64,000 nucleotides of DNA from Maricaulis sp. Lineage in GTDB: Bacteria > Pseudomonadota > Alphaproteobacteria > Caulobacterales > Maricaulaceae. The translations under genes were made by a program, and so were the position numbers. The DNA lies in NCBI RefSeq assembly GCF_017642925.1, contig NZ_JAEPOL010000006.1, positions 62,001 through 126,000 on the forward strand, given 5' to 3'. Shown in pieces: positions 7,276 through 13,107 of the stretch. How positions within the stretch are numbered: position 1 is the first letter of the stretch; every line of letters begins with the position of its first letter. The notes below the pieces were generated by a model that was not told the origin of the DNA, made no database searches, and saw only the letters and a program-made list of their open reading frames with translations.

Positions 7276-7409
7276 CCAGCACGCAAAATGCGCACAACGG
7301 CCCTGCGGACTGAGATTCGCGCAATTATCTGTTGTTGCGCCGCAACAGGGCCTGTATGCACGCCGCGCCCCGAGGGCCACGCCGGCCCTGCGGCGTAATG
7401 GAGATAGTC

Positions 7410-9983
7410 ATGAGCAACACGCAGAACTGGGTCGTACTGAAATTCGGCGGCACCAGCGTCAAATCGCTGGCGGACTGGCGTGTTATCTCCAAACGGATCG
7501 CCGACGTGCGGGCGGAAGGCAAACGGGTCTTCGTCGTGCACTCGGCCGTCGCGACGATCTCGGACCTGCTCGACACGCTGGTGACCCGCGCGGTCGCCGG
7601 CGAGGGCGAGGCCGAACTCGCGGCGATCAAGGCGCGCCATATGGAGCTGGCGACCGAGCTGGGTGTCGAGGGCGAGGCCCTGCTGGCGCCCTATTTCGAC
7701 GAACTGGACCGGCTGCGGGCCGGCCTGTCGCTGACCGGCGATGTGTCGCCGCGCCTGAAGGCGCGCATCATGGCCCAGGGCGAGCTGATGGCGACGACGC
7801 TGGGCCAGGCCTGGCTGGCACGTGAAGGCGTGGCCTCGGCCTGGCTGGACGCGCGCGACCACCTGACCGCCGCCCACGCCTCCGGCGCCCGCGGCTATCT
7901 GGCCTGCGACTGCCCCTTCGATGCCGACGCGCATCTGCAGCGCACGCTGGCAGACCTGCCGCCGGTGATCGTCACCCAGGGCTTCATCGCCCGGCGCGAG
8001 GATGGCGACACCGCCCTCTTGGGCCGCGGCGGCTCGGATACGTCGGCGAGCTATTTTGCCGCCAAGCTGGGCGCCGAACGTATCGAGATCTGGACCGACG
8101 TGCCCGGCTTCTTCTCGGCCGATCCGCGTCTGACCGGCGCCGCCCGCCAGATCCGCTCGCTCGCCTATGAGGAAGCCCAGGAACTGGCCTCGATGGGCGC
8201 CGGCGTGCTGCACCCGCGCGCCATCGGCCCGGTGCGCCGCGCCGGTATCGAGATGCAGGTTCTGTGCACGCACCGGCCCGAGATGACGGGCACGACGATC
8301 TCGGCCACCCCGTCGGAAGACACGCCGCGCATGAAAGCGGTGTCGGTGAAGCACGGCGTGCGCCTGATCACGCTGGAGACCGACGGCATGTGGCGCGCCT
8401 CCGGCTTCCTGGCGCGCGCCTTCGAGCCCTTCTCGCGCCATGGCGTCTCGATCGACCTGGTCTCCACCTCGGAGACCTCGGTCACGGTATCGCTGGACGA
8501 CGATCCGGGCCTGACGCCGGACGTGCTCGGTGCGCTGGAGGACGAGCTGTCGCAGATCGCCAGCGTCAAGCTGATCGAGGATTGTGCCGCCGTCTCGATG
8601 GTCGGCCGCGGCGTGCGCGCCCTGCTCGCCCAACTCGGTCCGGCGATGGAGGCCTTCGCCCATTACCCCGTGCGGCTGGTCTCCCAGGCGGCCAATGACC
8701 TCAACCTCACTGTCGTGGTGGATGGCGATCAGGGCCGGCCGCTCTGCCGCCGCCTGCACGACCAGCTGATCCAGCCCAAACCGCGCGACAAGACCTTCGG
8801 TCCGTCCTGGCGGGAAATCGGCGAGAACCTGACCGAAGCAGCCCCGGCCGGCGCGGGCACCTGGTGGCGCAACAAGCGTCAGGCGCTGCTCGATCTCTGC
8901 CCGGCCGACGGCGCGGTCTATGTCTACGATCTGGAGACCGTGCGCACGCGCGCCGAAGCGGTCTCCGGACTGAAGCATCTCGACCGCGGCTGGTATGCGA
9001 TGAAGGCGAACGGCCATCCGGACATGATCCGCACCGCCGTGGCTGCGGGCCTGGGCGTGGAATGCGTCTCGATCAACGAGGTCCGCGCGGCCCGCGACGC
9101 CGTGCCGGGCCTGGAGGCCGACCGCATCCTGTTCACGCCGAACTTCGCGCCGAAGGCCGAATACGCCGAAGCGCTGGAACTGGGCGTGCATGTCACGCTG
9201 GACGGACTGCACCCGCTGCGCGCCTGGCCGGAGATCTTCAAGGGCCGCAAGATCACGCTGCGGATCAATCCGCAGCGCCCGGAAGGCCATCACAAGCATG
9301 TCCGCACGGCCGGGCCGGAAGCCAAGTTCGGCCTGCATGCCGACGAGCTGGACGAGGCCCGCACGCTGGCGGCTGACGCCGGCGCGATCGTCAACGGTCT
9401 GCACGTGCATTCCGGTTCGGGGATTTCCGACCCGGATCACTGGCGCCGGGTCGGCCTCTTCCTGGTGGAGACGGCGCGGTCGATGCCGGATGTCGAGATC
9501 CTCGATCTGGGCGGTGGCCTGTCGGTCGACGAAGCCTCGGGCGTGCGCCGCATCGACATGGCGGCGCTGGATGCCGTGCTGGGCGATCTCAAGACCGCCC
9601 ATCCGCAATACCAGCTGTGGATCGAGCCGGGCCGCTATATCTCGGCGGAAGCCGGCGTGCTGCTCGCCCGGGTGACCCAGCTCAAACACACCCCGGATGC
9701 GCGCTTCATCGGCCTGAATACCGGCATGAACTCGCTGATCCGGCCGGCGCTCTACGGCGCGCGGCACGAGATCGTCAATCTCACCCGGCTCGACGAGGAC
9801 GCCGCCTGGATCGCCGATATTGTCGGTCCGATCTGCGAAACCGCCGACCGTCTGGGCGCCCAGCGCCTGATGCCGGAAACGCAGGAAGGCGATGTCATGC
9901 TGATCGCCAATGGCGGCGCCTATGGCCGCGTCATGTCGTCCAGCTACAACATGCGCGAACCGGCCGGCGAGGTGGCGATCTAG
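7410..9983 (+). CDS. Bifunctional aspartate kinase / diaminopimelate decarboxylase (LysC-LysA fusion)
   Basis: This 857-residue fusion joins the first and last steps of lysine synthesis. Residues about 5-290 are aspartate kinase (KFGGTSVKS near the start, RGGSDTSASYFAAKLGAERIEIWTDVPGFFSADPR), and two ACT modules follow (about 300-445). Residues about 470-857 form a fold-type III PLP decarboxylase: PLP lysine K532 in WYAMKANGHPD, the glycine-rich LHVHSGSGISDPD, and EPGRYISAEAGVLL for cofactor and substrate binding. The ACT modules suggest lysine or threonine feedback on the kinase. Fusions of this kind are known from Xanthomonas and Xylella relatives. ATG at 7410 has GGAGA upstream. No frameshift at the junction. 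Confidence 0.93.
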   Translation: MSNTQNWVVLKFGGTSVKSLADWRVISKRIADVRAEGKRVFVVHSAVATISDLLDTLVTRAVAGEGEAELAAIKARHMELATELGVEGEALLAPYFDELDRLRAGLSLTGDVSPRLKARIMAQGELMATTLGQAWLAREGVASAWLDARDHLTAAHASGARGYLACDCPFDADAHLQRTLADLPPVIVTQGFIARREDGDTALLGRGGSDTSASYFAAKLGAERIEIWTDVPGFFSADPRLTGAARQIRSLAYEEAQELASMGAGVLHPRAIGPVRRAGIEMQVLCTHRPEMTGTTISATPSEDTPRMKAVSVKHGVRLITLETDGMWRASGFLARAFEPFSRHGVSIDLVSTSETSVTVSLDDDPGLTPDVLGALEDELSQIASVKLIEDCAAVSMVGRGVRALLAQLGPAMEAFAHYPVRLVSQAANDLNLTVVVDGDQGRPLCRRLHDQLIQPKPRDKTFGPSWREIGENLTEAAPAGAGTWWRNKRQALLDLCPADGAVYVYDLETVRTRAEAVSGLKHLDRGWYAMKANGHPDMIRTAVAAGLGVECVSINEVRAARDAVPGLEADRILFTPNFAPKAEYAEALELGVHVTLDGLHPLRAWPEIFKGRKITLRINPQRPEGHHKHVRTAGPEAKFGLHADELDEARTLAADAGAIVNGLHVHSGSGISDPDHWRRVGLFLVETARSMPDVEILDLGGGLSVDEASGVRRIDMAALDAVLGDLKTAHPQYQLWIEPGRYISAEAGVLLARVTQLKHTPDARFIGLNTGMNSLIRPALYGARHEIVNLTRLDEDAAWIADIVGPICETADRLGAQRLMPETQEGDVMLIANGGAYGRVMSSSYNMREPAGEVAI

Positions 9984-9992
9984 GGAAGCGCC

Positions 9993-10775
9993 TCAAGAAT
10001 CCGATTTGAAGGTCTTTTTGCCGTCTGGACCATAGTGGACGTAGCGCGCCGTTCTTTTATGTATCTTACTATGCGTGGACGCTGCATCGACACGTGTCTT
10101 AAAATACTTCGTGGCCCATTCCATTTCTGCGTATTCTACAGGAAACTCCTGATGAGTAAGCAAAGGACCGATTATCGATGACACCCAATCTGCCATCTGT
10201 ATAGTTCCATATAAGTGGCTTTCAACATGATAAGGCGGCTCAACCAAACGCTTGGCTGGCTTTTCTCGAGAAAACATTGTTTTCATAGCGCCTTCCAACA
10301 AGCGCGTTCGGGAGCCGTGCTCGTCCATAACTATTAGATAGTTACTTGATTTGGTCGAAAAATATCGCTCAATTTCACGAATAGCGTGACTCAATACGGT
10401 TGCATATAACCCTGTCGGCTTCGAACGATCAGGGGTCATATCCTTTACTACTCCATGATAAAATATCTTTCCGCGCCTTTGCTTTATGTTATTTATCAAA
10501 GCATACCCAAGGCGCTTATTTTTATGCACTCGCCCAGAGGTAAATAGCGAGTTTCCTTTTTTCTCCCAGACCGACGAATTTGCGCCAGCCAATTCGATAT
10601 CACGCTCGAAAGCCGCTTCTTTTAGCTTGTGAAACCAATGAGCTAAGTCCCTCACTTGATCGACGTCTAATATAAACCCGCTGACGCCAAATATGGGGCT
10701 TGTTTTATATTTTTCGTGATTCTTGGAAACGAAAGGACCTATATGTCCAAATTCGTCTAGAAATACCATATGCAT
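9993..10775 (-). CDS. DUF3800 domain protein (RNase H-like fold predicted)
   Basis: This 260-residue protein begins MHMVFLDEFGHIGPF; ATG at 10769 is an equally possible start. DUF3800 proteins carry an acidic residue in an N-terminal 'hxDExG' strand (here FLDEFG), a second acidic strand (LIVMDEHG) and a C-terminal 'hQhADhhas' helix (GTIQMADWVSSII), which together suggest an RNase H-like metal site. The biological role is unknown; members occur in mobile and defence-rich regions. Codon and base use are clearly more AT-rich than the neighbours, a sign of horizontal transfer. It converges on the lysC-lysA fusion and has a structured leader upstream. Confidence 0.85.
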   Translation of the reverse strand: MHMVFLDEFGHIGPFVSKNHEKYKTSPIFGVSGFILDVDQVRDLAHWFHKLKEAAFERDIELAGANSSVWEKKGNSLFTSGRVHKNKRLGYALINNIKQRRGKIFYHGVVKDMTPDRSKPTGLYATVLSHAIREIERYFSTKSSNYLIVMDEHGSRTRLLEGAMKTMFSREKPAKRLVEPPYHVESHLYGTIQMADWVSSIIGPLLTHQEFPVEYAEMEWATKYFKTRVDAASTHSKIHKRTARYVHYGPDGKKTFKSDS

Positions 10776-10945
10776 GCGATATTCGTACAAAAGCACGAAA
10801 GCCCACACAAGCTATTTGTGTGGGCTCCGGCAACGAGAGCGGGGATATCCCATCGCGTCTCAGACTAGAAACTATGCAAACCCCCTTAAGGTTTCAATAG
10901 CGAGCTGCTTTTTTTGCTACACCGCGTGAATCGCTTCACTAGTCT
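10776..10945 (-). ncRNA. Structured RNA leader/small RNA upstream of the DUF3800 gene
   Basis: The stretch before the DUF3800 start folds readily on the minus strand. A perfect 11-bp stem (AGCCCACACAA with TTGTGTGGGCT, 5-nt loop, 10800-10826) sits 25 nt before the ATG. A GGGATATCCC palindrome (10842-10851) and a GTGAA/TTCAC hairpin (10926-10939) lie further upstream. Candidate 'DUF3800' RNA motifs located 5' of DUF3800 genes are known from comparative genomics; I cannot match this sequence to one of the published classes by eye. It may be a cis-regulator or the RNA partner of the protein. The boundaries are approximate. Confidence 0.5.
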
Positions 10946-11022
10946 CATTCGATAAATTTTTCCGCTAATTGCGGAACTCTCGCAGTTAAGTCATCTGAAA
11001 GCGGCATATCGACAGGACACGC

Positions 11023-11328
11023 ATGTACGGTCTGATCGGGAAGTTCATTGCGGCGGAGGGGCAGCGTGATGCGCTGGTCGATATCCTGCTGGAGGGCATG
11101 GCCAGCATGCCGGGCTGTTTCAGCTATGTCGTCGCGCGCGATCCGCAGGAGGCCAGCACGATCTGGATCACCGAGGTCTGGGACAATGCGGAAAGCCACC
11201 GCGCCTCGCTGGAACTGCCCTCGGTGCAGCAGGCGATCGCCCGCGGCCGGCCCCTGATTGCAGGCATGGAGCGGATCGCCGAGACCGCACCCGCGGGCGG
11301 GCACGGTCTGGCGAAGGAACCGCTCTAG
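11023..11328 (+). CDS. Antibiotic biosynthesis monooxygenase-type (ABM/YgiN-like) small enzyme
   Basis: This 101-residue ORF starts MYGLIGKFIAAEGQRDALVD with AGGA eight bases upstream. The ABM ferredoxin-like fold is recognisable from the first strand, 'GCFSYVVARDPQEASTIWITEVWDNAESHRASLELPSVQ' and a final short strand. Members act as quinol monooxygenases or small cofactor-free oxygenases and dimerise through the sheet; the substrate cannot be told from the sequence. GC content returns to the chromosomal level here, marking the right border of the AT-rich islet. It converges on the DUF4396 gene with a 6-bp gap. Confidence 0.8.
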   Translation: MYGLIGKFIAAEGQRDALVDILLEGMASMPGCFSYVVARDPQEASTIWITEVWDNAESHRASLELPSVQQAIARGRPLIAGMERIAETAPAGGHGLAKEPL

Positions 11329-12242: not shown

Positions 12243-13107
12243 GTTCAATCGACATTCAGGGATTCACAAAGTTGGTCGGGGTGTGATTCATAGGGTTCCA
12301 GATTCATTGATCTGGAGCCTTGGATGTTACGACCGAAGCGCTACGAGCTAAGTGCGGAACAATGGGACCGGATCAAGGATTTACTGCCCGGCAAGGTGGG
12401 CGATCCGGGGCGGTCGGGGGCGGATAACCTGACCTTTGTGAACGGGGTGCTCTGGGTCTTGCGGTCCGGCGCGCACTGGCATGATCTTCCGGAGCGTTAC
12501 GGCAAGTGGAAGACGGTGCACAAGCGCTTCACCCGCTGGGCGAAGGCGGGCGTGTGGGAGCGCGTATTCGCGAATCTGATCCGCGATCCGGACAATGATT
12601 ATGTCAGCCTGGATTCCAGCCTGGTGCGGGCACATCAGCAGGCAGCCACCGGCAAGGGCGGCGGCCAAAAAGGGGGGACCAGGCTCTGGGGCGATCCCGA
12701 GGAGGACTGACCACCAAGATCCACATGGCGGTCGATGCCCTGGGCCGCCCGCTCAAGCTGATCCTGACACCCGGCCAGCGCGGCGATGCGCCGCTCGCCC
12801 CGGCCCTTCTTGATGGCCTGTCGCCGCGCCGCGTGCTGGCCGACAAGGCTTACGACTCAAACGCCATCAGAGCGCTGGTCGCAGGCATGGGCGCCGAGGC
12901 GGTTATCCCGTGCAATCCAACCCGCAAGCGGCTCATCGCCTATGACTTCGAAGCCTACAAGATGAGAAACACCGTCGAGCGCGGCTTCAACAAACTCAAA
13001 CACTTCCGCCGCATCGCAACCCGCTTCGACCGCCGCGCAATCTACTTCCTGGGCTTCCTGCAGATCGCTGCTGCCATGCTCTGGATGCGATGAATGTCGA
13101 TTCAGCC
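12242..13107 (+). mobile_element. IS5-family (IS427-like) insertion sequence
   Basis: The element is about 866 bp long. Its ends are imperfect inverted repeats that both contain AATCGACATTCA (left end 12247-12258; reverse complement at the right end near 13090). TA (within CTAG) flanks both ends at 12240-12241 and 13108-13109, consistent with the TA/YTAR target preference of IS5 subgroups. It carries a two-frame DDE transposase joined by a slippery A5G6 run. Both ends and the reading frames look intact, suggesting a recent and potentially active insertion. Confidence 0.88.
12324..13093 (+). CDS. IS5-family transposase, two ORFs joined by -1 frameshift
   Basis: The first frame (12324-12710) encodes MLRPKRYELSAEQWDRIKDL, the N-terminal DNA-binding part and the first catalytic Asp (LDSSLVRAHQ). 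The second frame carries GRSRGGLTTKIHMAVDALG, the second Asp (ADKAYDSNA) and the Glu region (NTVERGFNKLKHFRRIATRFD). A run of five A and six G at 12667-12677 lies where a -1 slip joins the frames, and the slipped reading restores the canonical GRSRGGLTTKIH motif. That points to programmed frameshifting rather than decay. All three DDE residues are present. Confidence 0.88.

What the first reader, a model, noticed from the sequence alone, without database searches (positions are those of the whole stretch)
9993..10980. AT-rich islet with a DUF3800 gene and a structured RNA upstream
GC content drops sharply across about 1 kb. The single gene encodes a DUF3800 protein with RNase H-like acidic motifs. 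Immediately upstream lie a perfect 11-bp hairpin, a GGGATATCCC palindrome and further stems. Structured RNAs 5' of DUF3800 genes are an established but functionally unexplained association. This locus could be a compact RNA-protein toxin-antitoxin or anti-phage unit between two housekeeping genes.
Basis: partly seen in the sequence, partly recalled or inferred. Interest (0 to 1): 0.75.

Follow-up and report, generated by a model that had tools for sequence, protein, structure and literature searches.

The report
RNA leader on a mobile nuclease gene
A roughly 1-kb piece of foreign DNA carries one gene for a predicted RNA-cutting enzyme, preceded by a short folded RNA that relatives of this gene in many bacteria and phages also carry; this folded RNA is not in the Rfam library and probably controls the enzyme's production.

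Summary
Window 9986-11014 is an AT-rich insertion (about 44% GC in 62-73% surroundings) between a lysA-type gene and an ABM-domain gene. Its one gene (minus strand, 10775-9993) encodes a DUF3800 protein, modelled as an RNase HII-like fold (pLDDT 94.7).

The upstream stems are a real structured RNA. The 11-bp hairpin (P2) and the GGGATATCCC element (tip of P1) form a two-hairpin 5' leader. It lies directly 5' of nearly every relative examined: 98 of 102 distinct upstream regions match a core pattern and two more match a covariance model. These come from several phyla, plasmids and phages. Covariation is overwhelming: 14 of 19 pairs have double changes, with 222 double-change cells against 61±8 in shuffles. 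G-U pairs vastly outnumber A-C in P2 (220:2), so the coding-strand RNA is selected. A model built without the window finds it at 49 bits. The -10 box usually sits 7 nt before P1. Rfam 15 lacks it.

Promoter, leader and gene move as one unit, including into a known P2-phage anti-phage hotspot.

Most likely the leader acts in cis, controlling translation of the nuclease. A trans-acting RNA-protein (antitoxin-like) role is unproven but open. DUF3800-linked RNAs are a known kind; this one is a distinct variant.

The parts
9986..11014 (.). AT-rich islet inserted between the lysA-type gene and the ABM-domain gene
   Evidence: GC profile. blastn to L016 aligns on both sides and breaks at these points, with about 230 bp in its place; closest relative L015 has a different cargo upstream of its ABM gene.
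9993..10775 (-). DUF3800 gene, 260 aa, RNase HII-like fold; invariant acidic residues D7, E8, D151, D196
   Evidence: Pfam PF12686; AlphaFold2 pLDDT 94.7 and best PDB match RNase HII 1eke; invariant columns in 77 relatives.
10776..10861 (-). structured 5' leader RNA (P1 + linker + P2 + conserved 3' tail)
   Evidence: Model R1 built without the window: 10878-10783(-), 49.2 bits, E=8.3e-13; covariation; strand test.
10835..10861 (-). hairpin P1 (GAG-AC-GCG ... CGC-T-CTC, capped by GGGATATCCC)
   Evidence: All 8 consensus pairs show changes on both sides; 86.8% of cells paired.
10798..10828 (-). hairpin P2 (13 bp here), the 'perfect 11-bp hairpin' of the finding; terminator-like but with a weak U tract
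   Evidence: 98.7% of cells paired, 6 of 11 pairs with double changes, GU 220 against AC 2.
10869..10874 (-). -10 element TAGTTT, 7 nt before P1
   Evidence: Across 94 leaders, 43% have a >=9/12 promoter against 4% in shuffles, with the -10 end 7 nt before P1 in 28 of 40.
10892..10897 (-). -35 element TTGAAA, spacer 17
   Evidence: 8 of 12 matches in the window itself.
7332..9983 (+). left neighbour: aspartokinase plus diaminopimelate decarboxylase-type fusion (lysA-type)
   Evidence: ORF; conserved in L016; name from my own reading of the sequence.
11023..11328 (+). right neighbour: small ABM-domain-like protein
   Evidence: ORF; 70-96% identical in five congeneric genomes; name from my own reading.

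Best explanation
This is a mobile single-gene cassette: sigma-70-like promoter, a structured leader of about 86 nt, then a gene for a DUF3800 nuclease of RNase HII-like fold. SHOWN by sequence comparison: the leader is a conserved RNA of two hairpins, selected on the coding strand, tied to this DUF3800 subfamily, placed at a near-fixed distance from the start codon, and moved together with promoter and gene. INFERRED: transcription starts at the first base of P1, so the leader is the 5' UTR. INFERRED, most likely: the leader works in cis and sets translation of the nuclease. P2 abuts or overlaps the ribosome site, its 5' arm carries a purine (SD-like) GAGG/GGAG/GGGG run, and its lower pairs are kept weak (G-U). 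The nuclease itself probably binds or cuts the P1-P2 leader and so represses its own synthesis. INFERRED, weaker: the protein serves competition between mobile elements, for example superinfection exclusion.
For: Covariation: 93.7% of cells paired, 222 double-change cells against 61.4±8.3 in shuffles (0/500), slid controls 35-52% paired. Strand: P2 has 220 G-U against 2 A-C. Held-out tests: model R1, built without the window, finds it (E=8.3e-13) as the only strong hit in its 3.6-Mb genome; it also finds relatives left out of the training set, L048, L050, L109, L110, L112, L125, L135, L137. Spread: 98 of 102 distinct upstream regions carry the core, from genomes, plasmids and phages. Leader core is 91% identical between window and L036 while the proteins are 45% identical. 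Promoter placement. P2-to-start spacing: median 20 nt, 10-90% range 18-27; 7 nt in five leaders. No SD-like 4-mer after P2 in 31 of 95 leaders, window included. Distance modulo 3 is spread over all frames, so P2 is not coding. Loops are interchangeable, 38 of 95 being GNRA or UNCG-type, which points to a structural hairpin. Homology between distant loci covers only promoter-leader-gene(-terminator). Fold: RNase HII best, prob 1.00. phiO18P carries it between rep and portal genes, the P2-like anti-phage hotspot described in PMC9122126.
Against: No expression, binding or cleavage data exist here. P2 resembles intrinsic terminators (weak model hits fall on tRNA-side terminators), so a short separate RNA with read-through is possible. 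In Achromobacter the leader lies about 130 nt further upstream, which loosens the cis argument. 64 of 95 leaders do have an SD-like 4-mer after P2. The RNase HII match is moderate (TM 0.46-0.52, 9% identity), and catalytic residues were not superposed.
Confidence: 0.55

Rival explanations
1. RNA-protein pair acting in trans (antitoxin-like or RNP). P2 terminates most transcripts, releasing an RNA of about 65-75 nt that binds and restrains, or directs, the DUF3800 nuclease; read-through gives the protein. The unit would be a one-gene RNA-regulated toxin-antitoxin or abortive-infection module.
For: Own promoter ending at P1 and a terminator-like P2 between RNA and gene. Lone mobile cassette, also in a P2-like anti-phage hotspot and beside phage repressor genes. 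The RNA is more conserved than the protein. Nuclease fold.
Against: Tight P2-to-start spacing is not expected for an independent RNA. The U tract is weak: longest T run is 3 in 61 of 95. No tandem repeats as in type III antitoxins. The protein has no match in PADLOC.
Confidence: 0.25
2. Attenuator or riboswitch-type leader that senses something other than the protein (a metabolite, RNA polymerase state, phage signal) and controls read-through into the nuclease gene.
For: Two hairpins starting at the first transcribed base with a terminator-like second one; conserved unpaired stretches UUCC and CGUG flanking P2.
Against: P1 terminal loop and length are highly variable, with little room for a ligand pocket. 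Different DUF3800 subfamilies have different leaders (DUF3800-VI at L002), which suits protein-specific recognition better than one shared ligand.
Confidence: 0.13
3. The leader is a DNA-level signal (recombination or insertion end of the cassette), not an RNA.
For: It sits at one end of a mobile unit.
Against: Strong strand bias of wobble pairs; fixed placement relative to promoter and start codon; homology extends upstream of the leader to the -35 region.
Confidence: 0.04
4. The stems are ordinary terminator or repeat sequence and chance folding.
For: Folding z-scores are similar on both strands.
Against: Covariation, held-out recovery and invariant unpaired bases.
Confidence: 0.01

Closest known systems
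DUF3800-associated RNA motifs in Rfam (DUF3800-I RF02969, DUF3800-VI RF02915, DUF3800-IX RF02968)
   Same: Structured RNA immediately 5' of a DUF3800 gene. Rfam types DUF3800-VI as cis-regulatory. The same genome has DUF3800-VI 14 nt before another DUF3800 gene (L002).
   Different: DUF3800-VI is a 52-nt multibranch structure (two hairpins inside a closing stem); this one is two hairpins in series with different conserved letters. No Rfam DUF3800 model matches the window at E<=10, nor eight relatives.
RNase HII
   Same: Best solved-structure match (1eke, prob 1.00, E=4.6e-4). N-terminal LDEFGHxGP resembles the DE-x-G-x-G start of RNase HII (my own knowledge).
   Different: 9% identity; no RNase HII Pfam match in any of 77 relatives; large helical insertions.
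Type III toxin-antitoxin (ToxIN-like)
   Same: Small RNA, then a terminator-like hairpin, then a nuclease gene on a mobile unit.
   Different: No tandem RNA repeats; fold is RNase HII-like, not ToxN-like.
Cas12a2- and VI-F-linked DUF3800 proteins (PMC10910872, PMC12669027)
   Same: Same domain family; PMC10910872 predicts an RNase H fold with a catalytic rearrangement and notes the ncRNA link.
   Different: Those sit in CRISPR loci, one type fused to TPR; here a lone gene with its own leader.
Leaders through which nucleases repress their own genes (rnc, rne, pnp of E. coli; my own knowledge)
   Same: Hairpin leader in the 5' UTR of a nuclease gene; the proposed working model.
   Different: No sequence relation; autoregulation untested here.

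Membership tests
DUF3800 (PF12686) | score over the Pfam cut-off | tested here: met
   52.5 bits against 21 for the window; matched by all 77 relatives.
Known Rfam DUF3800 RNA motifs | match to an Rfam covariance model | tested here: not met
   No such match at E<=10 for the window or eight relatives; none at gathering score for leaders of 18 further relatives, while L002 did hit DUF3800-VI.
DUF3800-associated RNAs as a kind | structured RNA directly 5' of DUF3800 genes, with covariation | tested here: met
DUF3800 motifs published but not in Rfam | identity with a published alignment | not testable with these tools
   The original motif paper (Weinberg et al. 2017, named from memory) is not in the library; only 11 held papers contain DUF3800.
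RNase HII / RNase H superfamily | fold | tested here: met
   Foldseek 1eke prob 1.00, at moderate TM-score 0.46-0.53.
RNase HII / RNase H superfamily | superposed catalytic DE-D-D residues | tested here: inconclusive
   Four acidic residues D7, E8, D151, D196 are invariant and lie on b1, the end of b4 and a late helix, but no residue superposition was available.
Type III toxin-antitoxin | tandem repeats in the RNA | tested here: not met
   No tandem array in 9950-11050.
Type III toxin-antitoxin | toxicity relieved by the RNA | not testable with these tools
   Needs an experiment.
Known anti-phage systems | match to a defence protein model | tested here: not met
   No PADLOC hit; PHROG 26069 is of unknown function.
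Phage moron / hotspot cargo | autonomous unit inserted between unrelated genes | tested here: met
   Homology limited to promoter-leader-gene; varied neighbours; phiO18P gpA-gpQ position; IncP-like parB-kfrB slot holds another gene in P. fragi.

The most novel reading that the evidence does not exclude
The leader is processed or terminated at P2 into a stable RNA that forms a complex with the RNase HII-like protein and holds it inactive until a phage or plasmid signal disturbs it. This would be a minimal one-gene RNA-gated nuclease defence unit moving as a 1-kb cassette.
Probability: 0.22. Interest if true: 0.85.

Novelty: new variant of a known kind. Interest (0 to 1): 0.62.

Why it matters
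Structured RNAs next to DUF3800 genes have had no explanation. This case gives a well-defined motif with about 95 aligned examples, an inferred promoter and start site, a confident protein model whose nearest solved fold is RNase HII, and clear mobile-cassette behaviour. That makes the RNA-protein link directly testable with one purified protein and one 86-nt RNA. It also suggests a general rule, that each DUF3800 nuclease subfamily carries its own leader, and flags a candidate defence gene in known phage hotspots.

Tried and rejected
1) Rfam at gathering and lenient thresholds: no match at the locus. Weak hits in relatives were microRNA and terminator noise.
2) Folding energy alone: not strand-specific, so set aside.
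3) N-terminal extension through P2 (the ORF opens at 10808): rejected, since the P2-to-gene distance falls in all three frames.
4) First genome-contig scan with the single protein found nothing; the alignment query worked.
5) Early reading of some genome-search loci on the wrong strand, corrected.
6) Second R1 hit in the window, 18020-17934(-), 24.7 bits: sequence shows only a GC-rich hairpin without the conserved flanks; regarded as a terminator-like chance hit.
7) Leader copies without the gene (L149, L150-152, L171) look like decayed units. In L150-152 the flanks are as conserved as the leader, so they say nothing about an independent RNA.
8) SD sequestration by the UUCC before P2: not conserved in the window's own clade (inspection).
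9) IS110-like bridge RNA idea: dropped; no recombinase domain and no defined ends or target duplications at cassette borders.
10) Sequence search of the PDB gave only noise; the fold search was needed.

Full report
OBSERVATION. The window has a sharp fall in GC between about 10000 and 11000 (0.43-0.45 against 0.62-0.73 around it). Its only gene runs on the minus strand and matches Pfam DUF3800 (E=1.3e-13). Homologues support the ATG at 10775 (MHMVFLDEFGH), stop at 9993. Directly upstream, on the gene's strand, are the perfect hairpin (10800-10826) and GGGATATCCC (10842-10851). The islet is an insertion: in a congeneric genome (L016) the lysA-type and ABM-domain genes are adjacent with about 230 bp between them, and the closest relative (L015) has a different cargo upstream of its ABM gene. 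None of the other 18 congeneric genomes has this gene.

IS THE RNA REAL? Rfam 15 has no credible match at the locus, even at E<=10. Relatives of the protein were collected from whole genomes, plasmids, phages and viral contigs. Nearly all carry the same leader directly 5' of the gene: 98 of 102 distinct upstream regions match a core pattern, and two of the remaining four (Achromobacter) have it about 130 nt further upstream. Hosts include alpha-, beta- and gammaproteobacteria, MAGs labelled Acidobacteria, Gemmatimonadetes, Nitrospinota, Binatia, Rhodothermales and Cyanobacteria, and a Rhodococcus plasmid. The consensus is GAG-RC-GCA...UGC-C-CUC (P1), then UUCC, then GAGGCCCGCGC-loop-GCGCGGGCUUU (P2), then CGUGUUUCUGG. 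On 95 sequences and 19 pairs, 93.7% of cells pair, 14 pairs show double changes, and 222 cells are double-changed against 61.4±8.3 in shuffles (0/500); sliding the partner strand drops pairing to 35-52%. P2 has 220 G-U and only 2 A-C cells, so the coding strand is the one selected. A covariance model built without the window finds 10878-10783(-) at 49.2 bits, E=8.3e-13, and this is the only strong hit in the 3.6-Mb genome.

ANATOMY. A sigma-70-like promoter precedes the leader in many loci. 43% reach 9 of 12 matches against 4% in shuffles, and in 28 of those 40 the -10 box ends exactly 7 nt before P1, so transcription very probably begins at the first base of P1. In the window: -35 TTGAAA 10897-10892, -10 TAGTTT 10874-10869, P1 10861-10835, P2 10828-10798, ATG 10775. 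P2 ends a median of 20 nt before the start codon (10-90% range 18-27), and only 7 nt before it in five leaders. In 31 of 95, the window included, no SD-like 4-mer follows P2; the purine run in the 5' arm of P2 is then the nearest candidate (inference). P2 is capped by interchangeable loops (38 of 95 GNRA or UNCG-type) and has only a weak U tract. The leader is far more conserved than the protein: window versus L036 is 91% in the leader core and 45% in the protein.

THE PROTEIN. AlphaFold2 on 77 relatives gives pLDDT 94.7 and pTM 0.90. The best solved fold is RNase HII (1eke, prob 1.00, E=4.6e-4, TM 0.46-0.52). D7, E8, D151 and D196 are invariant. PMC10910872 had already predicted an RNase H fold with a catalytic rearrangement for a DUF3800 protein and noted the ncRNA link. 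No defence model matches.

MOBILITY. In many locus pairs DNA homology runs only from the promoter or leader to the end of the gene or its terminator, with unrelated flanks. Annotated copies stand alone among unrelated neighbours: between parB and kfrB in IncP-like plasmids, a slot that holds another gene in P. fragi; between phage structural genes on a Providencia IncC plasmid; near TIR- and caspase-like genes in Sphingomonas; next to a HEPN-domain gene in Thalassospira. In the P2-like phage phiO18P it lies between the rep and portal genes, the position PMC9122126 describes as an anti-phage hotspot. Viral copies also sit next to CI-like repressors, a tail fibre gene and a methyltransferase.

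MECHANISM. Shown: a conserved, coding-strand, promoter-proximal two-hairpin RNA inherited together with one DUF3800 subfamily. Inferred: it is the 5' UTR. Most likely (0.55): cis control of translation, probably through binding or cutting by the nuclease itself, because of the near-fixed distance to the start codon, the weak lower pairs of P2, and the pattern that different DUF3800 subfamilies carry different leaders (DUF3800-VI 14 nt before the paralogue L002 in the same genome). The main rival (0.25) is a trans-acting RNA released at P2 that pairs with the protein as antitoxin or RNP partner; a read-through terminator would fit that. A defence or element-competition role for the protein is plausible from placement only.

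NOVELTY. DUF3800-associated RNAs are known as a kind; this motif matches no Rfam entry. Whether it appears in the original motif paper outside Rfam could not be checked. I call it a new variant of a known kind.

Noticed in passing
L002 2163-2111 (-), gene 2097-1366 (-) (own genome, contig C29): A second DUF3800 gene in the same genome carries the known Rfam motif DUF3800-VI 14 nt upstream, so one genome holds two DUF3800 paralogues with two different leaders; a third paralogue (L001) has no Rfam match.
   Followed up: partly
window 53243-53084 (-): 6S RNA (RF00013, 54.5 bits), the only Rfam gathering-level match in the window.
   Followed up: no
L015 1805-3303: In the closest relative (G079), different genes (an HTH regulator, a small membrane-type protein and a beta-lactamase-like ORF, by my own reading) occupy the place upstream of the ABM gene, suggesting a variable insertion spot.
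   Followed up: partly
L016 about 1813-2014: The empty site holds GC-rich inverted repeats (CCCTCTCCCCGGGGAGAGGG type) between the lysA-type and ABM genes.
   Followed up: no
window 12324-13093 (+): Two consecutive ORFs that look like an IS5-type transposase split into two frames, about 1.3 kb from the islet.
   Followed up: no
L150, L151, L152 (around 1501-1650): Three species of one genus keep a leader plus the first codons (ATGATGTACATTGCC) of a lost DUF3800 gene.
   Followed up: yes
L109 2778-2870, L110 2779-2871: In Achromobacter the leader is intact but separated from the gene by about 130 extra nt.
   Followed up: partly
L020 2254-3908: The Sphingomonas plasmid copy sits directly downstream of a TIR-domain gene, a caspase-family gene and a small ORF, a possible defence neighbourhood.
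   Followed up: no
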